NCBI GenBank assembly: GCA_963575745.1
Contig: CAUYUJ010014171.1
Location: 1,616,005 to 1,680,004 of the forward strand
Direction: 5' to 3'
Source of the DNA: Prorocentrum cordatum
Lineage: Eukaryota; Sar; Dinophyceae; Prorocentrales; Prorocentraceae
Length of the DNA: 64,000 nucleotides
Shown here: in pieces, positions 31,376-63,425 of the stretch
Position numbering within the stretch: the first letter of the stretch is position 1
How the letters are laid out: each line of letters opens with the position of its first letter
The notes under the pieces: model-generated
Seen by the model: only the letters and a program-made list of their open reading frames with translations
The model's database searches: none
Told to the model about the DNA's origin: nothing
Translations under genes and position numbers: made by a program

Positions 31376-33823
31376 TTGGATTCATGTGAACGTGATCGCA
31401 GTCGCAGACTAGATGATTCTCATTTGGAGAACCTCTGGCCGTGCTCTGTGATGTGCACCATGCACCGCCAGCGGCGACCGTGTCCGGGCGACCCGAGGCT
31501 GCTGGTCTTCCTGCACGGAGACAAGTGGATGATCTTTGACAAGTGCTACCAGACCGATGGGACTACCGCATCCAAGGGGGCGGATTCCAGGTCGGGAGAA
31601 CAGCCGCGTAAGAAGGGCAGGCCCTCCCTGGCAAGAGTGAGAGCCCAGCTCCTCGAGGATAGTGCTGCGGTGAGGCCCAAGCCCGCCGAACGAAGGAGCC
31701 CGTCCGAAACGGAGCCGGAGGAATCCGCCGGCGCCCTGGACGACTCGGGAGACCTGTTCAGCGACGCCGCGGAAGAAAAGCTGCTGAAGGAGTCTAATCT
31801 ACGAGCATACGAGGAGTTCAATCTGAAGAGGGACGAGAACAGAGCGAGACTCGAAGCCGAGATGGAACGCCCTCGAGAGTTCACGATCGGGCATTCGCTA
31901 CGGATGGAGCGGACGACGAGTCAGGCGAAGGACCCGGAGTGTCTCGATATCCTGCGCATGCTGGATCGGCGGAAGGAGCAGAAGGCGGGCGCGGCCGATC
32001 GTGGTCTGGCGCCAAAAGCCGCCGAAGAATTCAGGAGGGCTGGTGACGGCCTACTTGAAAGGAAAGTTAGGACGACGGTCCTCGGTCAGCCCGACTGGGC
32101 CCCAGTCGCCCCTCGGGGGCAGGCCACAGGCAATCTGACGTGGAGGAGATGGGCCTTCCTGCAGTGCCACATCGGAGTTCTGGGGGCTCATCGCAATGCG
32201 GAGAAGACGGCAGCTTGCATCCGAAGAATGTGCTGGTGGAAGAACATGAGTTCCGACATCTGGCAGTGGGTCCAAGCCTGCGGCACCTGTCTAAGGTATC
32301 GCCGAGTGCCGCAGAAGGCGCCGACCAGCCCGTCGAATCCGACGGACCTCGAGTGTTGGCAGGATGTTATGATCGACTTGGAAGGCCCGAGCCCCCGGGA
32401 CAAGATTGGGAATCGGTATTATATGACCTACATCTGTTGTCTCTGCCACGGAGTGCTCATCGTAAGCATGATTGACACCACAGGAGCCGAGGCGCGTAGG
32501 GCATTCGCGATGTGCATGTTCCGATCGGGAACTATTCCGACGATGGTGCGGAGTGACCAGGGACCCGAGTTCAAGAACCGGATCATGGAAGAGTATACCG
32601 CTCTCCTCGGGATCGGCCAGAAGTTCGGAGTTGCCTGGAGGCCCGTGGAACAGGGGCTTGTCGAAAACGAGCACAAAGAAGGTCAGAAACTCTTTGGAAT
32701 GCTCGTTAGGGACATCATGAAGTGCTTCCCATATGAGGTCGGCGAGCTCATCCCCTGCGTGGAATATATGATCTAGAACACGCCGGGACCGCACGGGTAC
32801 ACTCCGTGTGACATCGACCGCCGGTGGTCTATGGGGACGCCCCTGGAGCGCGAACTCCACGGCCAGGTGGTGAACGAGTCGGAACCGATTTCCGAGCGCG
32901 CGCGGATCATCTTCAAGGCTTATGAACAGGTCAGGCAGCGTGCGCTGCAGGTGAAGCGGCAGGACGCGATGAGGCGCGCGGATCTTTCGAACCGACGACG
33001 GCTCGGGAAGAGAGTCGAAGTGGGAGATCGAGTGTTGGTGCGCGACAACCGGCCCCACAGGACAGGAGGACGAACGATGTGCAAGAGCCCTCTGTCGGAG
33101 CCTGCTGTGGTTACTCGGGTCAACCATCACAAGATTCACGTGCAGTTTTCTGATGGGACTACTAATGAAGTGCATCTAGAACGAATCCTGCAGATCCCGC
33201 GTGGGTACTACGACCCAGAGCATTCGACTTCAGCGGCGCCCGGGCCCGGCAGTGACGTGATGCCTGACGTACTGGCGACAGGGAACCTTGGAGCGCCAGC
33301 CATGGAGCCAGGAACGATCCGAAGGCGTTCCCCGGGGATGATGCTGGAAGACGACGGCAAGACCGTGCTGGAGCATGAGGACCAAGTGCGAAAAGGGAGT
33401 GGGAAGCGAGGGAAGCTGGACGGACTCGTTCCAGGCAATTCGATGATCGCCTACTCCGTGTCGTCGTCCGAGAAGCTCCTGAACATCGGGCTGTATATTA
33501 GCTCGAGTGAAGGAGGACAAGATGTGGATGTCCACGTGTACGGCGTCGGAACGGATTACAGGATGAACGCGAAGTGGAAACCTCTGTACCGGACCAGTGA
33601 TGGAGTACCCCGATTCGAAAGAGAAGATGGCGGATCGGTCACCATCCTACGCGACGGGTGGATGCCTAATATCGAGCGGATTTTGACCAAGAACATCATC
33701 CGGATAGTCGGACTTACGCCAAAGGGATGCTGTACCACAAGGACAGCCGCGAGCTTGACTAGCAAGGATGGAGTTGGAAACCTCATCGCGAAGCGGGGAT
33801 CTACGCTGCTGTCAGCCGCTTAG
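31376..33823 (+). pseudogene. Retroelement integrase (H2C2 zinc finger, D,D-35-E core), one internal TAG
   Basis: After a charged N-terminal region comes the zinc-binding HHCC module: CHIGVLGAHRNAEKTAA then ACGTCLRYRR (about 32165-32300). The catalytic core follows with Asp 32375-32377 (MIDLEGP), Asp 32555-32557 (RSDQGPEF) and Glu 32663-32665 (LVENEHKEG). There are exactly 35 residues between the second Asp and the Glu. A TAG at 32774-32776 interrupts the same frame, which resumes NTPGPHGYTPCDIDRR. An SH3-like tail (VEVGDRVLVRDNRPH, VQFSDGTTNEVHLERIL) ends the domain near 33200. The remainder to the stop at 33823 is unassigned. Integrases of this type insert retroelement cDNA. The TAG makes this copy defective unless read through. 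Confidence 0.8.
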
Positions 33824-45384: not shown

Positions 45385-45640
45385 CTTGGATGGCCGCGGC
45401 GGTTGCTGAGTACTTAACATACTTACTACGCTAAGTTAAGTACTTAGTAAGTAGTTAGCGGACTTAGCCAAGTACTTACTCAGTCATTACTAAGTGGCCC
45501 ACTTAGTAATGACTTAGTAAGTACTTAGCTATCCACTTATAACCAGTTAGCTAAGTGCTTAGCGCACTTAGCTAACCACTTATAACCACTTATAGCTAGT
45601 TTGCTAAGTAGGTTATAAGTGACTTAGCGGTTACATTGCA
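45385..45640. repeat. Left inverted terminus and ACTTAGTAAGT subterminal array
   Basis: After the 26-bp terminal repeat come many overlapping copies of ACTTAGTAAGT, CTAAGTACTTA, AACCACTTATA and GTTAGCTAAGT in both orientations, which also makes short local palindromes. Subterminal repeat arrays of this kind are transposase-binding regions in several DNA transposon families. Confidence 0.85.
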
Positions 45641-46283
45641 CTTATCCAAGGGCCATGCACAGGGAAAAAAGGTAAATCCACGTCTTGAAAGAGCTGAGTT
45701 TGTTCGTTGAGCGCTGCAGCGCTACAAATTTTGCATTTTGATTCGGAGTCGGTGTCCTGGATTTTTGCTTTAAATATGAGAAGCGCTGCAGCGCTGCCTT
45801 CGGATTTATATGAACATGAAGCGCTGCGTGCGCTGAATATGAAGCGCTGCAGCGCTGAATGTTGAGTTAAATGCATGTTTTCTAGTTGCACGTTGTTCGG
45901 ATCTTCATTTTCGCCCAGCTCCGTTTGCAAGGAATTTGAATGCACATGTCAATTATGTTTTGTTGTATTCGTTGTTTTTCAATGGTCGCATTGAGCGCTG
46001 CAGCGCTCCAAATTTGATAGCACGTATGTTACTTTGCGCTGCAGCGCAAAAAAATGGTTGTCGTCGTGATGTCGCATCGCGCTGCAGCGCGTGCGCGCTC
46101 GTGCTTCATGGGCCTCGGGCTGCAGCCCAGATCAACATTTTTGCTCGCAAGTTGCATGTCCATGCAAGTCGATGTTCACGCGCACGCCGCGCGACAGCTT
46201 GTCTCAAGCTGCGGCCGCGCGCCGCATCCGCCGTCGCGCCCGCGGGCTCGCACGTTGCATTCGGCGCTATATATAGCGCTGGC

Positions 46284-49178
46284 ATGGCGCTGCAGGCGCG
46301 TCAGGAGGAGCAGATCTTGCAGTACATCGAGGAAAGCAATTCCTCGGGGAGGTTGGCATCGGGGTGGGATCAACTGAAGGAGTTCCTGCTGGCGGAGGGG
46401 CTAGCGTATTACCAGCAGGTCCCACCGAACCAGATGGGCATCGACATTCGGAACCGCAGCGGTTCGTTAGTGAACCCTGCGCGGGCTCGCAATGTAGGCG
46501 CGAAGATTTGCGCCCAGGGCTTCGTCTTGGCCAAGACGGCTGCAGCCACTGCCTTCGAGGCCCCGCAGGGGGCGCAGTTGGAAGAGACCGCGATGGCGAA
46601 CGACCGCCTTTCGCGGCTCAGCGGGGGTCGGTGCCCCCCGCTGGACTCATTGCGGTATACGTCAGTGGGCGGCTCCCACACGAACGTCTTCCTCCGCTGC
46701 GTGCTGGCCAAGGCGCCGACCACAGTGAAGGCGCTGGCAGACTCTCGGGACAACATCGACTCCGAAAAGCTGTGCGCGTTGCATCCGCAACTTGCGACGG
46801 CAGTCAAAAAGGGCCTGACGTGGTTGATCATCAAGCACGCGGTGGCCAAAGTGAAGGGCCTCAAGAACTTCGTGCAGAGGGCTTTGAACGCCGACGTCAG
46901 GGAGGCGGTTCACGAGACCGAGATCATTCGGTCAGGCTGCAGCCTATCCCCACTATAGTATATAGCGGTATGTAGTAAGGACCAGGATGATGCACGAGGA
47001 GGGTGATGAGTGGGAGTGCGTTGGGGAGGAGGTGAGAACGAGGAGCAGGAGCATTATATCTTACCGTGCTGCAGCACTTGATCGGCTCGGCGCTTGCTGC
47101 AGGCAGGTGGGCGGATGCTCTTGGCACACAGCCTCGCTGAGGGTTCCAGCAAGCCCGATTGGCGCGACATCGCCGAGCAAGCGGGCCACGCGAACCCACC
47201 TTGCAAGGCGTGGATCGCTGACTTGTGCAAGTTTGTTGAGCTCGGGCCACAAAACGGAGAACTTCTCCGTGAAATAGATGAAGCCCTCAAGACCTTCACG
47301 AATGTGGACGTCTCGGGGCAAACTTTGATGTGCGGCTCTGAATTTTGGCGCAAGTTGAATTCGATTAAATGGGGGAAGCACCAGGAGTCGTACCCGTATG
47401 TCGTAGCGGCGCTCGTGAAGGCCAACTATTCAGGCGAGCACGTGGTGGATAGCATGTGCAGGACCATCCATAAGCTTGTCGGCGCCCCCTTGTAGTGACA
47501 TGCGCTGCAGCGCATCTATGCATTGCGCTGCATTGTTAGAACTGCGTACCCACCCCTCCCCCCTCCCCACACACACACCGTTACATTGCTTTATTCCCAG
47601 ACGCAATCGCTGGAGCGATGGGCGGATCAAGGCAAACGAGATCGTCCACGTCGCGTCCCGCAAGGCGGACGTGGCTGCGGCCGACAACCTCATGGCCGAC
47701 GCAAGGTCGCTCGTGAAGAGGTTGGATATCGGAGCGGAGCAGGGCTTCTTGCACATCGCTAAGTTGGATGTCCGCTGTGCCATGCACCTGGTGAAGAAGC
47801 GAGCGCCAGGAGACCGCACTTTCGGATGCGTGGCAGATATAGCACAGGTATCTTCTCATGCCACCTTTCGTGTGCTCCTTGTTTCCCTCCCTCCCTGCTT
47901 TTCGCCATTCAATGTCGCTGCAGCGACCCTCCAGAGAGGTCTTCCTCCATGAGCTCGGGGAGCCAGCCCAGCTGCAGATGAAGAGCTTGGGGATCGAGTT
48001 CGGCAAGGCGGTGCAGACCGACAAGCAAGGCGATGGCGCACCCGAGTTCCCAGCAGGCGCCGATGCAGACGCGCCGCGCGCGGCAGCGTCGTCGGCCGCT
48101 GAGTTGAAGAGCAACGTCTTCCGCATGCGGCGTGCAGGGTTCGACGTGGGGAAACACATCGTCCAGAAGAAGGAGGTGGATGACGTCTTCGAGGTGCTCT
48201 CCATCTCGGAAAATGGGATCACCGCTCAGAAGAAGTTGCACGACGACCTGGTGGGCGAAGGGATCTCCATTGCGTGGCTGCAGCCACCCCGCCGCCCGTG
48301 GGGGGCAGGGAGGGGGGAGGAGGAGGTAGTAACTGCGATATTGTATTTCCTGTACTTAAGTTGCAATGGGTTGGTCGATGCGCTGCAGCGCACGGAGCAG
48401 TTAGCCGAGCGGGCGGATTGAAGTAAACATATTGCTCGAGAATTACAAGTTGACGTCCAAGGTGCAAGAGCAGTTGTCGTTCACGAAGGAGCACTTGCCG
48501 CCAGCCCACGAGGGTTGGGCGATGGACGCGTTCAAGGGGGCATGCAACATGGCGCTGCGGCAGCGCTGAAGTCCCAGGCGAACATTTTGCACTTGGAGAT
48601 CCTGCAGGACCCACCTGCCGCGCGCTGCAAGCGAGCGTTCAAAGTTGGTGAGCTCGTCAGACTTGTGCCTCCGCAGTCGTCCGCGCCCCCTCCGACGACG
48701 CCGCGCTGCAGCGCTGCGCTGAGCACGAGGTAGCGAGGATTTCGGGGCACGTCAGGCCGTAGCGACGAGGTCAGTGATGTTACCGACTGCGCGCCATGTA
48801 GCTCGACGCGGTGGGAGTGGTCGCATGTCGGCCTCGTCCACGCGGGTCAGCACGGGCTGCGTTGCGGAGAGCATCTCGTTGGGGAAGGTTGGCCTCTACG
48901 AGTTCTTCGTGGGCCCGCATTTCGCAAGGCCCCCCGCTGAGGGGTCGCGGGGCCCCGACGCCTTTGTCAGCCCCTTCTGGGTGGTGGCAAAGTCCGACTC
49001 AGAGCCCAACGTGGAGCTCCGAAAGGAGACCGTGACGTTCGGGACAGGCGTCAGCAAGGTGCAGGTGGGGGTGCCCCAGATGCATAACACTTGCGCCCTG
49101 TCCGCGGGCGACTTCCTGGTGGTGAAGCCGTGGCCGCGGCTGCAGCCGCGGCCAGCCAAGATGCTCAGGACGGCCTGA
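46284..49178 (+). CDS. Multi-exon gene A of the TIR element, unknown function
   Basis: Start ATG 46284 (MALQARQEEQILQYIEES), just downstream of a palindrome AGCGCTATATATAGCGCT that contains a TATA-like core. Exons read by eye: 46284-46930; about 47103-47491 (MLLAHSLAEGSSKPDWRD, DWRDIAEQAGHANPPCKA); 47601-47847 (NEIVHVASRKADVAAADN); 47939-48273 (VFLHELGEPAQLQMKSLG, RAGFDVGKHIVQKKEVDD); about 48425-48640; and about 48800-49178 (VGLYEFFVGPHFARPP). Exon 1 has SVGGSHTNVFLRCVLAKA and KKGLTWLIIKHAVAKVKG. Exons 2-3 and 3-4 join in phase. Several introns start or end at a GCTGCAGC palindrome. It reads as a member of a dinoflagellate multicopy family whose function I do not know. Confidence 0.6.
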
Positions 49179-49672
49179 GCTGGCGATATAGAGGGACCAC
49201 GCGGGAGGATGAGGCAGGAGGGAGGGGTGATGCGGAGGAGGAGGAGGAGGCAGGGCAAGGTTTGGCATCGGGAGGAGGATGAGGGGGCTTAAGGAGCGGC
49301 GAGCGCACATGACGGCACCGAGCGTGGCCCTCCGATTGGTGTAAACAGTGTGCGGGTTGGTGCGAAGTGCGATACTTGCCGCGGCGCTGCAGCGCGCGGA
49401 ACGATTCGTTGCGCCAGCATCGTCGCTGCAGCGACTGTACAATATTGGTGCTGACATCAGCCTTTCCCACAGACATGCCGCTGCAGCGGCTTCGTCATCA
49501 CTGTTGTGCTCGATGTGATCGTTGCTCTTCGCTTCATCTTTCACATGCGCTGCAGCGCACCTCATCATGAGCACCTCGTCCGCGCACATGTTGCCTCATC
49601 ACTCCATCGCAGCAATTTTGGCGCTGAAGTGCGACCGCGCTCGGGCTGCAGCCTCGGCGCGCCGCGCGCGCG

Positions 49673-50437
49673 ATGACGACGATCAAGCGCGACTGCGTCG
49701 TGTTGCACGACAACCGTACGGGGCGCGAGCTGGTCACGGCCGTCGAGGTCATCGGAGACCGCGAGTGTATCACCGTGACCACCGCAGGTTGGAGCAAGTG
49801 GGCGTGCGGCAAGGCTCAGGGCTTGCGAGGCACGATGTTCCTAACGTGGCTGAAAAATCAGCGCGCCGCGTCGTCGGGGCCAACGGCGCCGACGACGCTC
49901 TTCGCTGCAGCGGAGCCAGGCCGCCGCCCGACCACGCGGTCCGGCCGCGCCAGTCGCCAGGTTCCAGTGGACAAGTGCTTCAAGACAGTGCAGCTGCCGC
50001 CGTTTGGCGATACGGAGGCAACAGAGCTGCAGATTGTCATTCCCCCACCTCATAGGGGGGGGAGGGACAAGCTGCAGGTGGTGCTGCACGAGAAGGGCGT
50101 AGAGTACATCAAGGCCAAATTGCTTCAGGAGGCGGCGGAGGCGGCAGAGGCGAGCACGGTGCTGAAGCGCCCGCGGCGCCACGAGACCGATGTTCCTTGC
50201 GGCACCCGCATCTATTGGGTGCAGCGGCTCCAAGCTTGGCGGGCCGTCCGCACAGACTGCGGTTGCAGCAGGACGGCCTTGTTCCGCACAAACCGCGGCT
50301 GCAGCAAGGATGACGCTGAAGCGGCCGCGGCGAAGTGGTGCACCGCCGAACTCAAGGATTGCGAAGCGGATGAGCTCCAGGAGATGGAAGCGGAGGCGGA
50401 GGGCGATGCGGAGGAGGAGGAGGCCGACTCGGACTGA
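49673..50437 (+). CDS. Gene B of the TIR element, unknown, acidic C-terminus
   Basis: 254 residues in one exon from ATG 49673 to TGA 50435-50437: MTTIKRDCVVLHDNRTGR, VEVIGDRECITVTTAGWS, GLRGTMFLTWLKNQRAAS, FKTVQLPPFGDTEATELQ, GVEYIKAKLLQEAAEAA, CGTRIYWVQRLQAWRAVR, then an acidic tail (EMEAEAEGDAEEEEADSD). A partial GCTGCAGC palindrome lies inside the coding region. A basic middle with an acidic tail suggests a nuclear protein. No domain recognised. Confidence 0.6.
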   Translation: MTTIKRDCVVLHDNRTGRELVTAVEVIGDRECITVTTAGWSKWACGKAQGLRGTMFLTWLKNQRAASSGPTAPTTLFAAAEPGRRPTTRSGRASRQVPVDKCFKTVQLPPFGDTEATELQIVIPPPHRGGRDKLQVVLHEKGVEYIKAKLLQEAAEAAEASTVLKRPRRHETDVPCGTRIYWVQRLQAWRAVRTDCGCSRTALFRTNRGCSKDDAEAAAAKWCTAELKDCEADELQEMEAEAEGDAEEEEADSD

Positions 50438-50715
50438 GCTGCGGCGCGCTCGGTCGACCGCATCGCTGGGGCGTGCGATCACGGTCGGCAGTGCGATTGA
50501 GAATGGCAGCGAGGAGGACGAGCACGAGGACGAGGGCGAGGAGGAGAAGGAGGAGGAGGATTGGGATAATAATTGCGGATTGTTGGTGGATCCCCCCAAT
50601 GTTCGCTACTGTTGGTGTCATTGCGAATCGTTGGTATGATCAAGCGTGCTGCAGCACGACGACACTACGATCAAGTGCGCCTCTCACGCGTTGCCGCCGT
50701 CGATGTGTGACCTCA

Positions 50716-50850
50716 CAGCGCTGCAGCGCTGACTTACGTTTCGTGCGTTTGGAGTCCATCGTGCTGCAGCGCTGACTTACGTTCGGGTGTCTGGCGTGCC
50801 GATATCAGAGTTTTGCGTCGCGCTGCAGCGCTGACTTACATTTTGTGTGT
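50716..50850. repeat. Three direct repeats each containing a GCTGCAGC core
   Basis: The block GCTGCAGCGCTGACTTAC followed by GTTT/ATTT-type sequence and GTGTCTGGCGTG occurs at about 50719, 50763 and 50822. This is the one place where palindrome plus flank is duplicated as a unit, suggesting local tandem duplication. Confidence 0.75.
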
Positions 50851-50947
50851 CTGGCGTGTTGATGTAGCGCTTCGATCGCGCTTGCAGCCCGCATGTTCGC
50901 TTTATGTTATTGTGTGTGGTTCGCAGCCACCTGTGATCAGAACATCA

Positions 50948-51301
50948 ATGGCTGCCAACATGAATGCAGCGACGCCGCCATGGCGGCTTCCCTCGGAGCC
51001 AGTGCCGCCGCCGAAGGCGGAGTCCGCTGCATCGGATGCGACATATGCGGCTACCCCCCCTCCTCCGCCGCCGACGCCGCCACCACCGCCTCCGACGTCG
51101 ACGAGGACCGCGGCTGCAGCCGCCAGTGATGTGCCAGCCCCGCGCGCGGCTGCAGCCGCGCGCAAGCGCGATGCTGAGACCAAGGTTGGCATGTGGAAGC
51201 TTGTGTGCGACATGATTCGGGAAGCGCTTCAGCGCGGGGACCGCGGGACAGCGGTTGCGCTGGCAGTCCAATGCCACGTCGCGAAGAAGCCGCGGAAGTG
51301 A
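50948..51301 (+). CDS. Gene C of the TIR element, small Pro/Ala-rich protein
   Basis: 117 residues from ATG 50948 to TGA 51299-51301. The N-terminal two thirds is Pro/Ala/Thr low complexity. The end is a helical segment (ETKVGMWKLVCDMIREAL, QRGDRGTAVALAVQCHVA, KKPRK). The 22-base palindrome 51142-51163 lies in frame and encodes an RAAAAAR run. Probably a small nuclear protein or an exon. Function unknown. Confidence 0.5.
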   Translation: MAANMNAATPPWRLPSEPVPPPKAESAASDATYAATPPPPPPTPPPPPPTSTRTAAAAASDVPAPRAAAAARKRDAETKVGMWKLVCDMIREALQRGDRGTAVALAVQCHVAKKPRK

Positions 51302-51419
51302 CGGGCGCGCGGCGCGCGCGCGGTCAGTGCTGCAGCACCACTGTTTCAGTCGGAGACAGCATCGCGACGGCGGCGACGGCGACAGAGACAACGACGACGG
51401 CGTTAAAGACGACGTAATT

Positions 51420-51960
51420 CAGAGCAGTGCATGCAGGAGAAGAAGGTGGAGGGAGGATGATGATGAGGAGGAGGGTGATCAGGAGGACGACGACATTGAG
51501 GACGACGTTCTGGAACGCCCTCATTTTCACAGGTTCCCACCGCTCGCTGCCAGCACCTCGGAGCAGGGGAAGGGGGAGCAGGATGATGATGATGATGAGG
51601 AGGAGGAGGGGGAGGAGGAGAAGGAGGCCGGGGACGAGGAGCATGACGAGGAGGAGGAGGAGGAAGACAACCAGTTGACACCCATGCCCCGCCCCCCCGC
51701 TCCTTCTGCCTATTCCTGCCTCCGCATACTCCCTCTCCTCCTCCTCCTCCTCCTCCTCCTCCTCCTCCTCATCCTCCCTCTCATTATCCTACTCCTCCTT
51801 CTCCTCCTCCTTCTCCTCCTCCTCCCTCTCCTTCTCCTCCTCCTCATCCGTGTCCTCCTCCTCCTCCTCCTCCTTCTCCTGCCCCCCCTCCTTCCCCCCC
51901 CTCCTCCTCTCCCTCCAATCCTCCTCCTCCCCCTCATCCTCCTCCTCCTCCTATCCTGAG
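51420..51960. repeat. GGA-rich then CTC-rich low complexity
   Basis: GGAGGATGATGA-type repeats to about 51665 and CTCCTC repeats to 51955. ORFs are homopolymeric. No gene. Confidence 0.9.
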
Positions 51961-52210
51961 GGGGCAGCCCTAGGGAGGTCAATCCAGTCGTTGGCCTTCG
52001 GAGGTTCAATTGGGGGTGATGTTACTTTGCGGGGTGATGTTACTTTGGGGGGGTCAGTCGACTGGTTAGCAGGGGTCCATCGTCGTCAGCGTCGTCGCCA
52101 TCGTATTCGTCGTTGGCACCGCCGCTGTTTTTGTTCCGCGCAGCTGCAGCTGCAGCTTCGCGCGCTGCAGCGTCGCGCGCCCGCGCGCCCGAGTGCAGCT
52201 TCAGCTGCAG

Positions 52211-52332
52211 TGATGGGACTGGTTTCCACCACCACTACCAAATGTTGGAGAAGGAGGAGGAGGAAAAAGAAGAGGAGGAGGAGGACCTCCCCCTCCAACT
52301 TATGGTACTGGTGGTGGAAACCAAGCCCATCA
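52211..52332. repeat. 40-bp imperfect inverted repeat upstream of gene D
   Basis: Arms 52211-52250 and 52293-52332 pair at roughly 34 of 40 positions (TGATGGG--TGGTTTCCACC against its complement). The 42-base loop is GGA-rich. It ends 45 bases upstream of the gene D start codon and may be its 5' UTR or an intron-derived hairpin. Confidence 0.75.
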
Positions 52333-52376
52333 TGCAGCTTGGCGAGCTGCAGCTTCGCTCGCTGCATCGCGCAGCG

Positions 52377-52934
52377 ATGGCGTCGCAGCTCGACTACGAC
52401 GAGGACGCCGAGGAGTTCGCCGTCCTGCGGCCGACGCCGCCTGCGGCGCCGCCGCCAGGGTTCGAGCCGTGGGACCCCGCGGTCGAGCTCGCTGCCGCCA
52501 AGGCGCGGCCGACGTCGCGCGCCGCCCCGTACGGCAAGGGCGGCAGCGACGGCCCACCTTGCAAGGGCAAGGGCAAGGGCAAGGACAAGGACAAGGACAA
52601 CGTCGGCGGCCCACCTTGCGGCAAGGGCAAGGGCAAGGACAGGGACGGCGGCGGCCCACCTTGCAAGGGCAAGGGCAAGGACAAGAGCAAGGGCGGCAAG
52701 GGCAAGCTTGTCCGCGACGGGGACCAGCAGCTGCGGCGTGGCGGCTGGTCCAATCGGGCGCAGCAGCTCTGCGAGCTGCTGTTGCAGGGCGAGTGCGCCG
52801 ACGCGGCCGCCCTCGCGGAGGAGTTCTACGCTGGGCCTGCACAGGTCTGGGTCGGCGCTGGCGCCGAGGAGGCCGCCGAGGAGGCGCAGGCGCCCGAGGA
52901 GGCGCTGAGGAGGCCGCCGAGGGGCGCCTCATGA
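52377..52934 (+). CDS. Gene D of the TIR element, Gly-Lys repeat protein
   Basis: 185 residues from ATG 52377 to TGA 52932-52934: MASQLDYDEDAEEFAVLR, then three GGPPC-KGKGKGKDKDKD-type repeats between residues 60 and 115, then a folded-looking helical tail (GGWSNRAQQLCELLLQG, CADAAALAEEFYAGPAQV). The Cys before each Lys-rich run is constant. Such KGKGK repeats bind nucleic acid non-specifically in many proteins and recur in gene E of the same element. The last 20 codons run into GCC/GAG repeats. Confidence 0.55.
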   Translation: MASQLDYDEDAEEFAVLRPTPPAAPPPGFEPWDPAVELAAAKARPTSRAAPYGKGGSDGPPCKGKGKGKDKDKDNVGGPPCGKGKGKDRDGGGPPCKGKGKDKSKGGKGKLVRDGDQQLRRGGWSNRAQQLCELLLQGECADAAALAEEFYAGPAQVWVGAGAEEAAEEAQAPEEALRRPPRGAS

Positions 52935-53149
52935 GGAGGCCGCGGAGGAGGCCGCGGAGGAGGCCGCCGAGCGCCGAGGGCGAGCCCTCGCGAGGGCGAG
53001 GGCGCCTGCCGAGGGCGAGCCCTCGCGTCGCCGAGACGGCGCGGCGCTGCGCCCTCCTGGCGCTGCAGCGCCTGCGGGCGCCACATGAGAGCTGCGGCGC
53101 GGCCGCGGAGCATTCCACTACTGGTGGGCGACGGAATGGGACGGTAACT

Positions 53150-54130
53150 CAGTAGAGGTAGACAGGGGGAGAGGGGGGACTATAGTAGAGGTAGACAGGG
53201 GGGAGACGTGATATACATAGGGAATGCGAGGGGGACGATGGAGACGCAGCGTGGGGGGGGGAGTGAAGACACATTGGAGAGAGACGGTAGACAGGATGCC
53301 CGCTGCAGCGGGTATCCACTCTCCCGTGAGCGAGGGGGACAACGAACGCATAGTGATAGGATACATGCTGTAGCAACCCAACATGTAAGATCAATGGGAG
53401 CAATGGGGGGGTGGATTGGATCAGTTCGCGAGCATAGCTGACGCCGACGCATGCATGTGTTTAGGCCAGGTTATATTTCGTGCGCCAGATCGCGTGGTGC
53501 GCCCGCGCTGTCGCCCAGAAAGGCGCTCCGATATCCTCATCACATCTATCTGCCATCGTCGACGTTCACATCCTGATCCGCTGACATTTTTTCGTATGGA
53601 ATGATGTGCCAGGGGTCGGCCTTGGATTGGCCAGGAAAGTTTGGGGGCACTTGGGGGGGTCCTGGGGCACTTCAGATGGCAAACCGTCTCGCATCGCATC
53701 GCCCTTCGCCACTCTCCCTGCTCCCCTTCAGCACAGTTCGTTGCGCCGCCGAGTAGCTCCCCCCATGGCCTCCTGGCAGCCTCACCAGCTCCCATCAGCC
53801 TTGTCCTCAGCAGTCTCGAGCCATCGCGACGCTGCTGCAGCAGAGCCGTGAGCGTAAATCTTTGCAGTTGACAGCGGTTTCGGCATCGTCAACCTCGTCG
53901 CGACGCTGCTGCAGCAGCGCCGCGTGATGTACTTCGCGCCTCTCTTAGCTTCACCCCCACATCGAAATCAGCAGTGTGGACAGTGTTCTGGGACTGCGTG
54001 GGTGGGCGTTGGGGTGGGCTGGAGTGCTGGATGTTGGCATCAGGATGGCTGATCTGAGGTCGAACGGGAGCTTCGGGTGAAGCGATCTGAGAGCGTCGGT
54101 GCCCCTCTGCAGAGGTGATGCTGTCTGACA
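53150..54130. other. Intergenic, one palindrome, no gene
   Basis: Repeats of GTAGAGGTAGACAGGGGG at 53153-53210, a CCCGCTGCAGCGGG palindrome at 53299-53312 and two CTGCTGCAGCAG palindromes at 53832 and 53904. Nothing else is supportable. Confidence 0.5.
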
Positions 54131-54132
54131 GC

Positions 54133-54285
54133 GGCGTGTCTGTTCAATAGCCCCCTCTATTGAACAGCCACGCCCGTGTCTGTTCAATAGCCCCCTCTAT
54201 TGAACATGCCATGTTCAATAGCCCCCTCTATTGAACAGCCACGCCCGTGTCTGTTCAATAGCCCCCTCTATTGAACAGACACGCC
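54133..54285. repeat. Array of four identical hairpins with palindromic outer flanks
   Basis: TGTTCAATAG-CCCCCT-CTATTGAACA occurs four times (54141-54166, 54181-54206, 54212-54237, 54252-54277), with no mismatches seen. The spacers before copies 2 and 4 are the same 14 bases and the middle spacer is 5 bases. GGCGTGTC before the first and GACACGCC after the last make the whole array symmetric. The loop CCCCCT is constant. Confidence 0.95.
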
Positions 54286-54359
54286 TCTGTCGATGTCCCA
54301 GCTGCCTTCGAGGCTCCCAGATCGCTTCGGTATTTGCTCCTGATCACACTTCGCGCATC

Positions 54360-54800
54360 TCCTGAATCCGTCCCGCGCCCTCCTCGGACACCTTCCGTGT
54401 CCCTCCTGTGTCTGCCCGCCCGCCCGCTCCCGAGCTCCCGTGTATACCTATCCGTCTCCCGTGTCTCTCCCGCGTCTCTCCCGTGCCCCTTCCGTGTCTC
54501 CACCTGCCTTCCGTGCGCTCCCGCCCGTGTCCCTCCGCGCCGCTCCCGCGTCCGCCCGCCCGCTCGCCCCCGAACTCCCGTGTCCCTCCCGTGTCTCTTC
54601 CGTGCCCCCCCCCCGTGTTTCTCCCATGTCCCTCCCACCCCTCCGTGTCTTTCGCACCGTCCCTTCCGTGTTCCTCAAATGATCATGCATCTCCCCCCGT
54701 GTCCTGCCCGCCCGCCCGCCCGCGCTCGTGTCCTTCCCTCCCGTGTCTCCTCGCATCTCCCCCCGCCCCCCCCCCCCCCCTCGTGTCCCTCATTATCTCC
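54360..54800. repeat. CCCGTGTC-rich minisatellite-like tract
   Basis: CCCGTGTCTCT / CCGTGTCCCTCC units recur irregularly, 10-25 bases apart. ORFs are Pro/Arg/Ser-rich in every frame. Not coding. Confidence 0.8.
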
Positions 54801-55105
54801 CTCCTCTCCTTTCCATCACTCTATATCTCTCTCCCTATTGCCCACTACCATGCGTTCCATCATGGTGCGCATGCATAGCGCTGCAGCGCTTCATGTTACT
54901 TTGTGACGATGATTTCTGCTGAGCGCTGCAGCGCTCACGTGTTTTCCTTAATTGCATGCGATCGTTGCGCTGCAGCGCATCTGTACTGTTGTGGCCTCTC
55001 TTCCACCTCAGCAGCCGAGTGCTTCAGCTCTCGCAGTGTGGGGGGCCCTCCCTCGCGCTTCCCCTCGGAGCGTCCGCGCACCCCCTCGCCCTCGCGGAGG
55101 GCATC

Positions 55106-56961
55106 ATGTCTGCCGCGGCTGCGGCCACACCCATCAACCACATCCTGGATAACCTGGACAGCTGCGACGCTTTCTTCGCATCGCAGATCGGCGTCATCGC
55201 CGCCGACGCGATGGCGCAGAGCCAGTCCGCCTTGTCCATGAGCGTACAGCTGCAGCTTCACAACTTGGGGACGATCGGGGCTGCCCAAGCAGCTACCCTG
55301 CATAATCGAATCACCGCGTCGGGCTTCGCGGACAGCCACGAGGCGCGCCTCAGCGCCGCGCTGGCCGCGCGCGTGGGCACGGCGACGCCCGCGCTCCAGA
55401 TGTGCGTGCAGGCGCTCGCGTCAGGGCGGTGCTGTCCATCGTGCTTTGCACATCGGACCGCCGAAGTGTTATTCACATGTATGGTTTAATTGTTTGTTCT
55501 GTACTTTATGTATGTTACCATGTTCATGCTTCAAATGTACTTATGTTATCATGCTGCAGCATGCCTGCGTCGATTCGTCGGCTGGTGGACTTTACCATGC
55601 AGGACTGGGGTTTATTTCGCGACCCCAACCAGAGCATCGTCGCGAAGGTGCGCGCGTTGATCAAACGTTGCGGTGCCATCGGCTTGACGGTTCCGAGCGA
55701 GAACACGCTGAAATAGTTGGCGGCGTTGATGGAATGCGCCCACCTTCCAGACGCAAGCCCTGGGCAGCTCTACGGGATCGTGACGGAGATGAAGGTTTGG
55801 GATTCGGCGGGAACGCCTAACGCAGACGCATCGCATCGCACTGACTGCAGCCAATGCGATGCGGCGCGTCAGCGTTAGGGTTTCCCGACGAGTCGCCCTT
55901 TACAGGGTCAGCTCTTGGCGAGCCGCAGGGGCGCGACGGGGCAAGCGGCGACAGTGACTTGGAATTTCCCAGCGGATCCTCGGCAGCTCCCTCAGCACAT
56001 CTTCGACGCGGCGCACGCCGATGCGGACCCGCCGGTCGATGTGACGCGCGACCTCGTCAACGTGGCATCGCATCTACGAGGCTGCTGCCACCCCGTCATG
56101 CGCTGCAGCGCTGATTGTTCTGGATGTCTTGGGTGCTTCGGCGAGCTCGGTCCTTTAGGTCCACCTCGCATAGAGCATGATAGGTTTCATGCTACGCGTG
56201 CGCCGCTGAAGCGGCCTGCGGGTCTCAACGCCATCAAGGCTCGCGTGCCTCTCAGGCTGACCAACAAGGGCTTGCGGGCTGCCGCCCCGCCGCATCAGCC
56301 GAGCACTGCCATTGTGCCATGGACACCATCGGGGTCACCCTCCGTGCCGCCTGCAGCGCCAGTGCAACCCATGGACGCGATGGCCGTGATGCAGCAAATG
56401 CTGGCAGCGTTTGCGCCACCGCCATCGCCGCCCAACGAGCTGCAGCTGCAGCTCTTCCCGCGCCGCCCTGCGGCGCCCACGGCGAGCCCCCCCGCGAGTC
56501 CCCCCGCGATTGGTGATTCGCCAGCTGGGCCAGCATTGTCAGCGGCGGCGCCAGATGCTGCTGCAGCAGCGCCAACGCCGCCAAACGAAGATGCTGCTGC
56601 AGCAGCAGACGGAGACGAGGATGCTGCGCTGCAGGCGATCGAGACCTTGGCTGCGGGCAGCGCGAAAGGCGAGCTGCCTCGCAAGGGCAAGGGCAAGGGC
56701 AAGAAGGGCAAGGGCAAGAGCGCGAGCAAGGGCAAGAGCAAGACAGGCGCTGGCAAGGGCAAGACGGCGGCCAAGGGCACGGCCAAACCGAAGGCCAAGG
56801 GCAAAGGGAAGGCCAAAGCCAAGGCCAAGGCCAAGCCCAAGGGCAAGGCGGCAGCCAAACGGGGCCAAATGGCACTCGGGTGCAGCAAATGCCGCTACCT
56901 GCCGAATGGCTGCGGCACGTGCCGCGACCCGAACTTCACTGGCCGTCGCGGCAAGCCGTGA
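55106..56961 (+). CDS. Gene E of the TIR element: four-exon protein with KGKGK region and Cys-rich end
   Basis: Exons join in phase by eye: 55106-55428, 55560-55794, 55906-56094, 56212-56961. The first intron's acceptor is the CTGCAG of a palindrome (55550-55563) and the third intron starts GTCATGCGCTGCAGCGC. Protein: MSAAAAATPINHILDNLD, ALASGRMPASIRRLVDFT, MQDWGLFRDPNQSIVAKV, then an in-frame TAG (55714-55716) before LAALMECAHLPDASPGQL, TVTWNFPADPRQLPQHIF, Pro/Ala-rich sequence, a long KGKGKGKKGKGK region and a final GCSKCRYLPNGCGTC module that probably binds zinc. The TAG sits where Gln (CAG) would fit. Function unknown. The basic region suggests nucleic-acid binding. Confidence 0.6.
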
Positions 56962-57704
56962 GCGCGCAACGGGCACTGTCGGCATATGGAGGTGAGGATG
57001 AGGATTATGAGGGCGAGGAGGAGGATGGGGAGGATGATGAGGAGGATGAGCATGTGGAGGGGAAGGAATGAGGAGGATGGTGAGGATTAGTGCGAGGTTG
57101 GATGGAACGCTGGCCGATGATATGAACGGTAGTGGCGATGGTCTTGCCTGGCGGTCGCGCGGCTCGCACGGACGACGAGGAGGATGAAAGTCAAATATGT
57201 TGAAGGGTTCTCTTGGATGCGGGCGCTGCAGCGCTGGCGCCTTTGTGTTCAACGTTTGCATCGCCATCATGATCACGATGCAGCGCTGCAGCGCTCGCTT
57301 TCCTGGATGGTGGCGTAGATATTGCGTGCTGTTGTGTTCCGATGCAGCGCTGCAGCGCCTGTCAGATTTGTGGCACCGTTGTAGCGTTGGCGCGTTTGTG
57401 AGTGTGCAGTTGCAGCCGCGGTGTCCATGTATTGCGTGACGTGCTCGTCTTGAGTGCCAGTCGCTTCTCGTCGATACGCGCTGCAGCGCCATCATTCGTG
57501 ATGTCGAGCGTTGTCTCCCGCATGGTTGTTGCCAAGTCACGCGCTGCAGCGCTGTGATTCACTCATGTTGCGCGTTGCCGATGGCATGCCCTCCTCTCCC
57601 TCCTCCTCATCCTCCTCCCCACTTGGCTCGCGCGTCGCAGCCGCCATCGTTCGTTGCAGCGGGTGCTGGCAACGGACCTCCTCCGCCTCCTCACTGGGCT
57701 CGCA

Positions 57705-58136
57705 ATGGCGGCGCGCCGCTGCGACAAGCCGTTCGGAGCGCAAGCGCGCGTCGACCGTCGCGACGAGTTGCGCGAGGCCCGCGCGAGAGCGACGGCGACT
57801 GCTACAGCAGAGGTGAAGGAGGCGCGGGAGAACGCCAGGAAAGCGGAGAAGCAGGTGCAGATCCGCACCGCGGAGCTGCAGGTGGATGAGGAGGCGGATG
57901 AGAAGGAGGACGGTGGGGTTCATGAGTGCGGCAGGCTACTCCCCCGCTGCAGCGGGGGAGAAGGACGACAGGGGGGATGATCAGGAGGAGGTGGAAGGCG
58001 ATGATGTGGGAGGATGAGGAGTATGAGTAGCAGGGTCGGGGTCAGATGGACATCGCCGCTTCGGACGTGGCCAACCAGAAACTCAACGAGGCGTTGACCT
58101 CGCTGCGGAACGCCAAGAAGATGAAGGTGACCTGAG
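57705..58136 (+). CDS. Gene F of the TIR element, two-exon coiled-coil protein
   Basis: Exons 57705-57881 and 58046-58136 join in phase. MAARRCDKPFGAQARVDR, then long charged helices RRDELREARARATATATA, EVKEARENARKAEKQVQI, RTAELQ and, after the intron, MDIAASDVANQKLNEALT, SLRNAKKMKVT to TGA. Heptad-like Ala/Leu/Val spacing suggests a coiled coil. The intron holds the 22-base palindrome 57939-57960. About 88 residues. Function unknown. Confidence 0.5.
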
Positions 58137-58789
58137 TGAGGTCGGCCTCGGCGACCGCCTGCTGAAGCATGCTGGTTCGATTGATTGGTAAAGGCTGGAG
58201 GGAACGTGGTTGAGCGTGTTGTTTGAGTTGCGCTGCAGCGCTTCTCCGTGGACCACGGTTGAAAGTTTGCGCGCGGATCATGATGTGTTAATGTGTTGCG
58301 CTGCAGCGCAGTTTCGCTTGCAGTTTCTCGTTGGATGGTGATGTGGCGGATGATGAGGGCGAGTGATATTGATGCTGTTGACGATGAAGGTGATGGTGAC
58401 GGGGAGGATGAAGGGACGGGAGACGGATGATGAGGAGGATGGGTAGGTTGAGGAGGAGGATGGGGAGGATGAGGGGGCGCATGGGGAGGAGGAGGAGGAG
58501 GAGGGGGAGGAGGAGGGGGAGGAGGAGGAGGAGGAGGAGGTATAGGAGGGGGAGGAAGAGGAGGAGGACGATGGGGGATGGCGAGCAGATTGTCATCATT
58601 GAACGTTAGCGGCGCTGTAGCGCCATGTGCTCCCAGACTGTTGCTTGGCAGTTGGCGCTGCAGCGCGCATTTGGTTGCTCTCCACGCGGCGCAGCCTCAT
58701 TTCCATCCGTAGTCGCCGCGGCCCCTAGCGGAGGGGCCCCTCCGCGCGCGCGCAGCGACGGAGGCAAGCTTGCCTCGGGAACGCGCGCG

Positions 58790-61346
<2,557 letters not shown>

Positions 61347-61616
61347 AACGTGGATTCCTTACTGGCGCTGCAGCGCACTTTTTTACATTGCTAAATGCTT
61401 CGGTGCTGCAGCACCTGAACGTTGCATGGTCGACGACTCCTCTTCTCCGCCTTGAAAACGTGGATTCCTTCTGCATGGCGCTGTAGCGCACCTTTTTCAT
61501 TGGCACTTCGGTGCTGCAGCACCTGAACAGTGCATGGTCGCCGATTCCTCTTCTCCGCCTCGTTCCTCCTCCTCCTCTTGCGCTGCAGCGCTAATGTCGT
61601 TGATCAGTGGTGCGGT

Positions 61617-61763
61617 CGTTCAAACTCCTCCTTCCCCGCATCCTCCCCCTTCTCCCCCTCCTCCTCCTGCTCCTACTGCTGCTCCTCCTCCTCATCTTGC
61701 TCCCCCCCCCCTTCTCCTCTCCCCCCCATCCTCTGACGAGGGGGGGAGGGTGGAGGAGGGGGA

Positions 61764-61794
<31 letters not shown>

Positions 61795-62375
61795 GAGGAG
61801 GAGGAGGAGGAGAGGAGGAGCGTGGGGGAGGAGAGAGGAGGAGCATGAGGAGGAGGGAAAACGACGAGATAGCTCAGAGCGAGTGGAGGTTGGGAGGAGG
61901 ATGGGGGGGGGGGGGAGGAGGAGGAGGAGGAGGGGGAGGAGGAGGAGGAGGAGGAGGAGGGGAGGGAGGATGAGGTTGGGAGGAGGAGGAGGAATGAGGA
62001 GGAGTAGGAGGAGGAGGAGGAGGAGGAGGAGAGAGGAGAGAGAGAGGTGCTAGGAGGAATGTGGCAGGAGGAGAGGAGGAGGAGGGGAGGAGGTGGAGAG
62101 AGGAGGAGGAGGAGGAGGAGGAGGAGGAGGGGATGAGGGGAGGAGGAGGACGAGGGAGGAGCGGAGGGTTAGGAGGACGAGGAGGAGGATGAGGAGGAGG
62201 AGGACGAGGGAGGAGTATATGATGATGACGAGAGGAGGAGGGCGAGAGGAGGAGGCGGAGAGGAGGAGGAGGAGGAGGAGGAGGAGGAGGAGGAGGAGGA
62301 GGAGGAGGAGGAGGAGGAGGAGAGGGAGGAGGAGGAGGAGGAGGAGGATAGAAGGAGGGGGGAGGAGGAGACGCC
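61617..62375. repeat. CTC-rich then GGA/GAG-rich low complexity
   Basis: Pyrimidine triplets to about 61730 and then over 600 bases of GGA/GAG repeats. No gene. It separates gene G from the hairpin chain. Confidence 0.95.
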
Positions 62376-62441
62376 GCCCGCGCGCGTGCGGCTTACAGGC
62401 CGCGCGGGGAGCGCGCCCTCCCTTTTCCCTTTGCTTCGCGG

Positions 62442-62825
62442 CTCGGGATCGCCATCGAAAAACATATCAAGACATGTTTTTCGATGGCGACCCCGAGCCA
62501 TGGGGCAGTCTCCTCTCGGAGGACCCCTCGGGGATGTCGGGGATCCTCCTCGACATCCCCGAGGGGTGGGACGGGCTCGGCAGCCATCGGCCCGTCGCAC
62601 GTCGTCGTCTCCCAACCCTCTGGGTTGTGGACGACGGCTACGTGCGGTGGGCCGCTCTGGCTGCCGAGCGGCGCGCGGGGCCCCCCCCGCCGCCCGCGCC
62701 AGCGGCAATGCCGCTGGAGATGGCGGCGCAGAGCGCGGCGCAGGCGAACTTCGCCTGCGCCGCGCTCAGCCGCGCCAGGCTGCCGCTCGACGCGGCGGCC
62801 CTGCAGGGCCGCCGCGTCGAGCGGC
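62442..62825. repeat. Chain of consecutive inverted repeats, ending in a 44-bp perfect palindrome
   Basis: Successive hairpins: 62442-62497 (24-base arms, one mismatch, 8-base loop); 62524-62566 (16-base perfect arms, 11-base loop); 62575-62669 (about 46-base imperfect arms); about 62700-62718 (9-base arms); 62731-62767 (18-base perfect arms, one-base centre); 62782-62825 (22-base perfect arms, no loop, CCTGCAGG centre). A plus-strand frame through it starts MFFDGDPEPWGSLLSEDP at 62474 and may be a short coding segment in which each piece has an inverted copy beside it. Confidence 0.9.
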
Positions 62826-63052
62826 CGTCTTGGGCTGAGGCGCGCCCGTCGCCGCCTCCGCCGCCGCCTCCCCCTTTCCTCCTCCTCCTCATCCTCCTCC
62901 CCGTCCTCCTCCTACTCCTCCTCCTCCTCGACATCTCCTCCTCCTTCTCCTCCTCCTCCTCCTCCTTCTCCTCCTCCTCCTCTCTCCCCCTCCTCTCTCC
63001 TCCTCCTCCTCCTCCTCCTCCTCTTCCTCCTCCTCCTTCTCCTTCTCAGAGT

Positions 63053-63425
63053 CCGCTAACCACTTAGTAAGTCCGCTAACCACTTAGTAAGTAAGCTAGC
63101 TAGCGGACTTACTATGTGGTTACTAAGTGGTTAGTAAGTGGTTACTGGGTGGTTACTAAGTGGCAGCTAAGTGGTTACTAAGTGGTTAGTAAGTGGTAGC
63201 TAGAGTGGGGACTTAGCGAGCTAACCTCGACTAGAGACTTAGCAAGGTTAGCCTCCAGCTATAAGTGGTTAGTATCTCCTACTAACCAGTTGTAGCTGGT
63301 TATACAATTTACATCCTACTTACAACACTTATAACCTACTTACAACTCACTTGTACGTACATACTAAATCCTCTAACCCCTTAGTATCCGCGCTAACCAC
63401 CTAGCAGCCGCCGCGGCCATCCAAG
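63053..63425. repeat. Right subterminal ACTTAGTAAGT array and inverted terminus
   Basis: Contains CCGCTAACCACTTAGTAAGT twice in succession, then GTGGTTACTAAGTGG, AAGTGGTTAGTAAGTGG and ACTTATAACC-type motifs, ending with GCCGCCGCGGCCATCCAAG at 63407-63425, the complement of the left terminus. Same motif family as 45411-45640 in inverted orientation. Confidence 0.85.

What the first reader, a model, noticed from the sequence alone, without database searches (positions are those of the whole stretch)
45710..61591. About 50 perfect palindromes with constant GCTGCAGC core and variable arms
In each copy the outer 2-7 bases differ (AGC, TTTGC, GGG, CCG, GTC, GTT, CTCCCCC and others), yet the two arms always match. 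Descent from one repeat would not preserve pairing in changing arms. Either the arms are copied from each other at insertion or by fold-back synthesis, or pairing is selected. I counted them only inside the TIR-bounded segment.
Basis: seen in the sequence. Interest (0 to 1): 0.9.

Follow-up and report, generated by a model that had tools for sequence, protein, structure and literature searches.

The report
Palindrome array in a giant transposon
A large jumping gene of a red-tide alga carries about 70 short mirror-image sequences with one fixed centre and varying but usually matching arms, mostly between its genes and near its introns; related elements in the same genome carry such arrays too, which suggests they do a job not yet known.

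Summary
69 GCTGCAGC cores lie in 45,700-61,600, against 1.5 in shuffles and 0.064 per kb genome-wide (4.34 per kb here). The base pair next to the core matches in 67 of 69, the second in 57, the third in 41; the fourth is at chance. The unit is a 14-bp palindrome.

The segment is an 18-kb DNA transposon of Prorocentrum cordatum with 18-nt terminal inverted repeats and a 2-bp target duplication. A relative of its transposase models as RAG1-like with a BAH-like domain. Among up to seven copies compared, none lacks a palindrome cleanly, so insertion or excision was not seen.

Four lineages with 54-62% identical transposase exon D, and a fifth at about 35%, also carry dense arrays. In the four, 11 of 16 places at the ends of two introns keep an intact or one-mismatch core, with arms that partly differ yet pair. 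This favours selection for pairing. My best guess is RNA hairpins with a self-complementary loop that help noncoding parts of the transcripts to be handled (0.37). A two-fold DNA-binding site is the main rival (0.3). Copies within the family show no clear constraint (p = 0.26). There are no RNA data.

The parts
45385..63425 (+). Whole DNA transposon (18 kb), terminal inverted repeats CTTGGATGGCCGCGGCGG, 2-bp target duplication (AG here)
   Evidence: a copy on C1 aligns at 95.7% and stops at the same ends; 2-bp duplication in 3 of 3 copies whose two ends were read, one of them (C4) interrupted by other sequence
45385..45402 (.). left terminal inverted repeat (outermost C in 6 of 7 left ends read)
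63408..63425 (.). right terminal inverted repeat
45410..45650 (.). left subterminal CTAAGT/ACTTAG repeats (no GCTGCAGC here)
63050..63400 (.). right subterminal CTAAGT/ACTTAG repeats (no GCTGCAGC here)
45710..46129 (.). 7 palindromes 38-151 bp apart before gene 1
46284..48569 (+). gene 1 (unknown protein; exons inferred from homologous proteins and reading frames). Cores 46936/47068, 47504/47609 (decayed core), 47917 and 48277/48382 in or beside its inferred introns; borders uncertain
49386..49652 (.). 5 palindromes before the ORF at 49673
50645..50831 (.). 4 cores before the ORF at 50948; one (50763) is asymmetric
54877..54979 (.). 3 palindromes before the ORF at 55105
57223..57552 (.). 5 palindromes before the ORF at 57705
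58230..58666 (.). 3 palindromes and one decayed core (58614) before the transposase gene; a further one present in C1 and C4 is deleted in this copy
58790..61346 (+). transposase gene (exons A-F inferred)
   Evidence: relative P0023 modelled, RAG1-like with BAH-like C end
59247..59489 (+). intron B/C (GAG|GACTTT...TTCGCAG|GAT, inferred); cores 59265 and 59455 inside, near its two ends
59685..59792 (+). intron or insert C/D, 108 nt and in frame in this copy (232, 169, 95, 184 nt in four other lineages); cores 59693 and 59774 near its ends
60372..60540 (+). region D/E. An NCBI gene model joins after TMQ (60371), but amino-acid likeness among lineages runs on to about core 60417; core 60532 probably lies in the first codons of exon E (AAAPA), so its conservation can be due to the protein
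61367..61591 (.). 4 palindromes after the transposase stop

Best explanation
Shown: an 18-kb P. cordatum transposon carries 55 cores GCTGCAGC in predicted noncoding sequence (provisional mask), most with paired arms of about 3 bp, clustered before genes, after the transposase gene and near intron borders; other element lineages carry dense arrays with the same core and often with other, paired arms. Inferred: core and pairing are under selection in active elements. Inferred, less sure: they act in RNA. Each would fold into a 4-5 bp hairpin capped by UGCA; the constant part is self-complementary, so any two hairpins could also pair with each other, for instance across an intron. They would mark or bridge noncoding parts of the element's transcripts so that introns are removed correctly in a host with varied splice sites.
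For: Enrichment and arm coupling. Density 6.5 per kb in predicted noncoding against 1.9 in coding sequence. In introns B/C and C/D of the window cores lie inside, near both ends; in four lineages that are 54-62% identical to the window and 57-71% to each other in exon D, these four places hold an intact core in 7 of 16 cases and a one-mismatch core with three paired arms in 4 more. Arms change yet pair: B/C 5' end CGTT/AACG in the window, CGCT/AGCG in C16514, CGCT/GGCG (one T-G) in C15189. All cores of the four lineages: arms 1-3 paired 27/38 (22.5 expected, p = 0.01), 27/38 (19.7, p = 0.0007), 22/38 (17.8, p = 0.04). In a fifth lineage (tblastn 34-35% in exon D) locus C18031 alone pairs 10/12, 9/12, 9/12 (4.8, 5.0, 5.5 expected; p 0.003-0.03). 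Homologous proteins of 60-75% identity read through as xLQR at like places (protein level only).
Against: No RNA evidence. The strand test is inconclusive: among cores counted as noncoding, T-G/G-T cells at arms 1-3 number 7 against 5 A-C/C-A in the window and 8 against 4 in the four lineages. Within the family, variation in the 14-mers is not clearly reduced (16/524 against 133/3554, p = 0.26; 7/510 against 125/3509, p = 0.004, only after leaving out one replaced stretch, a post hoc choice). 5 of the 16 matching intron-end places have neither an intact nor a paired one-mismatch core. The 3' core of D/E is probably coding. C on the left is preferred at arm 1 (40 C-G against 9 G-C), which a pure hairpin would not need. 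The intron at 47848-47923 has a core only at its 3' end.
Confidence: 0.37

Rival explanations
1. Double-stranded operator: a two-fold symmetric DNA-binding protein, of the element or host, binds the 14-bp palindrome; clusters upstream of genes are promoters and intronic copies are further control sites.
For: Clusters of 3-7 sites before ORFs; fixed 14-bp length with an abrupt end; preferred half-site GCGCTG.
Against: Independent half-sites would give about 28 of 69 pairs at arm 1, not 67. No 10.5-bp phasing of the 28 spacings between 20 and 160 bp (R = 0.08). No DNA-binding domain was recognised in the 12 translated pieces of the element scanned with Pfam (2, 10); not every ORF was scanned.
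Confidence: 0.3
2. Copying origin: arms were made by fold-back synthesis or by opening of hairpin ends (as RAG/Transib/hAT-type transposases leave, recalled), and then inherited without function.
For: Pairing falls off from the centre outwards, as copying from the centre would give. The transposase relative models as RAG1-like. Decayed cores at matching places in other lineages.
Against: No empty site among up to seven copies and no two-sided change inside the family. Several places are shared by lineages with 54-62% identical exon D, far for unselected 14-mers to stay paired. A fixed 8-bp centre is not expected.
Confidence: 0.12
3. Introner boundaries: the introns are introner elements and GCTGCAGC is their terminal inverted repeat, palindromic by accident.
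For: Inverted repeats of 8-20 nt within 30 bases of both intron ends, with direct repeats of 3-5, are the working definition used for P. cordatum (PMC10666404, passages); GCTGCAGC satisfies the inverted repeat for B/C and C/D.
Against: Does not explain matching arms within each palindrome, nor the clusters between genes and in the 3' region. No mobility of these introns was seen; it was not searched for.
Confidence: 0.1
4. IRE1-type cleavage hairpins: CUGCAG in a stem-loop is the consensus of IRE1 substrates, and introns could be cut at both hairpins and ligated.
For: Consensus CUGCAG in a stem-loop (PMC8301375, passages). Cutting at both cores keeps the transposase frame in C/D and D/E of the window.
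Against: It breaks the frame in B/C of the window; of ten intron tests in five loci five keep the frame, five do not. In gene 1 the joins 46936/47068 and 48277/48382 run into a stop at once or within about ten codons (read by hand). Seven hairpins in one leader are not explained.
Confidence: 0.06

Closest known systems
Introner elements of dinoflagellates (Amoebophrya, P. cordatum)
   Same: Inverted repeats of 8 nt or more close to both ends of introns, noncanonical splice sites
   Different: Here each repeat is itself a palindrome with one shared core and private, mostly paired arms, it also occurs between genes, and I saw it as an array only in this transposon group
Dispersed palindromic repeat families such as the PstI palindromes of Neurospora mitochondria (recalled; the three papers listed are, by title and abstract start, not about them)
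   Same: Short GC-rich palindromes with CTGCAG between genes and in introns
   Different: Nuclear, inside transposons, arms vary while staying paired
Subterminal transposase-binding repeats of CACTA/En-Spm-type elements (recalled)
   Same: Many short repeats in one DNA transposon
   Different: The subterminal CTAAGT repeats of this element are separate; the palindromes lie only in the interior
IRE1/XBP1 splice hairpins
   Same: CUGCAG in stem-loops near splice sites
   Different: Frame test mixed (5 of 10 kept); far more hairpins than introns

Membership tests
Introner element (definition in PMC10666404) | Inverted repeat of 8-20 nt within 30 nt of each intron end | tested here: inconclusive
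   Met for B/C (18 and 27 nt from the inferred ends) and C/D (8 and 11 nt); D/E borders uncertain
Introner element | Direct repeat of 3-5 nt at the intron ends | tested here: inconclusive
   AGGA at both ends of B/C; only AT at C/D
Introner element | Intron itself is a dispersed repeat | not tested
   Intron-only searches of the genome were not made
RAG1/Transib-type transposase | RAG1-like catalytic fold | tested here: met
RAG1/Transib-type transposon | 5-bp target duplication (recalled) | tested here: not met
   2 bp in 3 of 3 copies
CACTA/En-Spm | TIR beginning CACTA (recalled) | tested here: not met
   TIR CTTGGATGG
IRE1-type intron | Cutting at both hairpins keeps the reading frame | tested here: inconclusive
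   Kept in 5 of 10 intron tests in five loci; in the window kept in C/D and D/E, not in B/C

The most novel reading that the evidence does not exclude
A transposon-wide RNA address system: hairpins with one shared self-complementary loop and private stems tag the noncoding parts of the element's transcripts and pair with each other across introns, so that the element defines its own introns in a host with weak splice sites. It has persisted while the transposase diverged to about one-third identity.
Probability: 0.2. Interest if true: 0.87.

Novelty: new variant of a known kind. Interest (0 to 1): 0.7.

Why it matters
P. cordatum genes use GT, GC and GA donors (PMC10666404, passages), and what marks introns or promoters in such genomes is unclear. 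A motif that occurs about 70 times in one element, keeps its pairing while its arms change and recurs in diverged elements is a direct handle on how transposons are expressed or controlled there. It can be tested in transcript data and in simple binding or splicing assays.

Tried and rejected
Chance or composition: rejected. Recent insertion or excision of palindromes: no clean empty site in up to seven copies. Helical phasing: none. Excess pairing at arm position 6 in the window (32/69, expected 16.5) is absent in other lineages (2/38 and 8/25); unexplained. Viral and prokaryote collections: no relative of transposase exon D confirmed; phages: no match. Pfam: no family for the transposase pieces or nine homologous proteins beyond hits under the cut-off. 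Solved-structure sequences: nothing meaningful for exon D. Paper searches: (0 papers; 2; 3; 0) list nothing on such palindromes by title; I read passages and one section of PMC7789003. Subscription papers are not held.

Full report
Where it is. The window lies in a genome of 4,128,499,153 bases in 21,875 contigs. Two proteins of 99% and 94% identity to gene 1 are named Prorocentrum cordatum at NCBI, whose genome is about 4.15 Gb (abstract of PMC10449503 as shown in the listing). I take it as that species.

Check of the observation. 69 cores GCTGCAGC lie in 45,700-61,600, 2 elsewhere in the window. 100 dinucleotide shuffles give 1.47 on average, at most 5; for perfect palindromes of 12 bp or more with this core, 56 against 0.08. 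The whole genome holds 264,970 cores, fewer than the reversed control at 302,592: 0.064 per kb, against 4.34 per kb here. In the 45 kb to the left plus nine other loci, 134.6 kb in all, 10 cores remain after removing the nine by which those loci were chosen; these 10 pair in 5, 3 and 5 cases at arms 1-3. Around the nine I saw no array.

Arm pairing. 67/69 at position 1, 57/69 at 2, 41/69 at 3, 18/69 at 4, with 28.0, 28.7, 19.2 and 17.6 expected from column make-up. So the unit is 14 bp, with an abrupt outer end. In the 55 cores that my provisional coding mask leaves as noncoding it is 54, 49, 33 and 10 (the mask is drawn by me from ORFs and homologous proteins; core 60532 is among the 55 but is probably coding). 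Cores with one mismatch but three paired arms number 5, against 37 intact with three.

Copies within the family. In the 5' part I compared W, C1, C94, C48, C41, C26 and two pieces from C4; in the 3' part W, C1, C4 and a short second C4 piece. No palindrome is precisely missing. The window lost one by a 36-bp deletion that C1 and C4 lack, C4 has another stretch at 59265, and the rest are single substitutions. Variable columns: noncoding 14-mers 16/524, other noncoding 133/3554 (p = 0.26); leaving out the replaced stretch, 7/510 against 125/3509 (p = 0.004, post hoc). Coding background is 139/4118, hardly lower, so these copies drift almost freely and say little about selection.

Diverged lineages. 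I fetched five loci that the exon search listed at 57-72%. One, C17721, is close kin of the window in its other exons (95-100%) and is left out of counts. The other four are 54-62% identical to the window and 57-71% to each other in exon D. They hold 38 cores in 13.8 kb (2.75 per kb); arms 1-3 pair 27/38 (22.5 expected, p = 0.01), 27/38 (19.7, p = 0.0007) and 22/38 (17.8, p = 0.04), arm 4 13/38 (11.0). For the 30 that one search counts as noncoding it is 22, 23, 18 and 10; three of these, at the D/E 3' place, I now judge to be coding. At the four intron-end places of B/C and C/D an intact core stands in 7 of 16 cases, a one-mismatch core with three paired arms in 4 more, neither in 5 (my count). 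Arms change: B/C 5' CGTT/AACG (window), CGCT/AGCG (C16514), CGCT/GGCG (C15189, one T-G), CGCC/ATCG (C2703, unpaired at the two inner positions); C/D 3' GCGTC/GACGC in C14987 and around decayed cores in C15189 and C16514, GCGTC/GGCTC in the window. Cores also stand upstream and in the 3' region. Two loci of a fifth lineage, 88% alike and 34-35% identical to the window in exon D by tblastn, carry 25 cores in 7.6 kb, paired 20, 17 and 18 of 25 at arms 1-3; C18031 alone 10, 9 and 9 of 12. There I did not match places one by one, nor separate coding from noncoding.

Introns. Distant homologous proteins without the inserts (P0023, P0024, P0025, P0027, P0028) place the junctions SSE|DAW and LGIY|IADED. 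B/C then runs GAG|GACTTT...TTCGCAG|GAT with cores 18 nt and 27 nt inside its ends. C/D is 108 nt and in frame in the window, but 232, 169, 95 and 184 nt in four lineages, where it ends in AG; whether it is spliced in the window's own family is open. For D/E an NCBI model (P0015) joins after TMQ, but a VSxxxxHxR-like run follows TMQ in the window and three of the four lineages, up to about core 60417, and the 3' core is read as GAAAPARSA-like or DAAAPAVRSA before VFE-like residues in all five. So there one core lies near the border and the other probably in exon E. All of this is inferred from sequence, not from RNA.

Interpretation. Constant core plus private, matching arms is what selection for a paired structure with a recognised loop gives; independent half-sites of a DNA-binding dimer would not couple the arms so tightly in the window's element. 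A self-complementary loop would also let any two hairpins pair, which would suit two ends of one intron. That is inference. The sense-strand wobble test (7 against 5; 8 against 4) is too small. I put 0.37 on RNA hairpins (0.4 before the D/E correction) and 0.3 on a duplex operator.

Comparison with known kinds. The P. cordatum paper defines introners by inverted repeats of 8-20 nt and direct repeats of 3-5 nt within 30 bases of the intron ends (passages); the Amoebophrya paper describes such repeats (one section). B/C meets it, C/D meets the inverted repeat only, D/E is uncertain. IRE1 substrates share CUGCAG in a stem-loop (passages of PMC8301375); cutting at both cores keeps the frame in 5 of 10 intron tests, in the window for C/D and D/E but not B/C, so I raised this rival from 0.04 to 0.06. 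The recalled 5-bp duplication of RAG/Transib-type elements and the CACTA start are not met. I therefore call the element a TIR transposon with a RAG1-like transposase, without a family name.

Noticed in passing
G000 C1:282889-283002 and others, e.g. L134: A tandem repeat of about 53 bp also contains GCTGCAGC (CCAGCGCTGCAGCGGGAGCACGATTCGG...); it makes up many of the listed triple-core matches (3,951 in all, control 1,227) and looks unrelated to the element.
   Followed up: no
62782-62825: A single perfect 44-bp palindrome (22-bp arms) with centre GCCCTGCAGGGC near the right end of the element.
   Followed up: no
54141-54317: Copies of TGTTCAATAGCCCCCTCTATTGAACA, a short inverted repeat, within the element, including a duplicated 66-bp unit.
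   Followed up: no
55796-55905: A likely intron with a long inverted repeat (GCCTAACGCAGACGCATCGCATCGCA...TGCGATGCGGCGCGTCAGCGTTAGG), introner-like, seen by eye.
   Followed up: no
P0023 residues 457-543: The transposase relative ends in a BAH-like domain after a RAG1-like core, an unusual combination to my knowledge.
   Followed up: partly
P0017, P0019: UniRef names copies of this transposase 'RNA-directed RNA polymerase', which looks like a misannotation.
   Followed up: no
31376-32776: ORF with integrase zinc-binding domain (and rve below its cut-off) to the left of the element, probably a retrotransposon.
   Followed up: no
cores in 45700-61600, arm position 6: Excess pairing ten bases from the centre (32/69, expected 16.5), not seen in other lineages.
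   Followed up: partly
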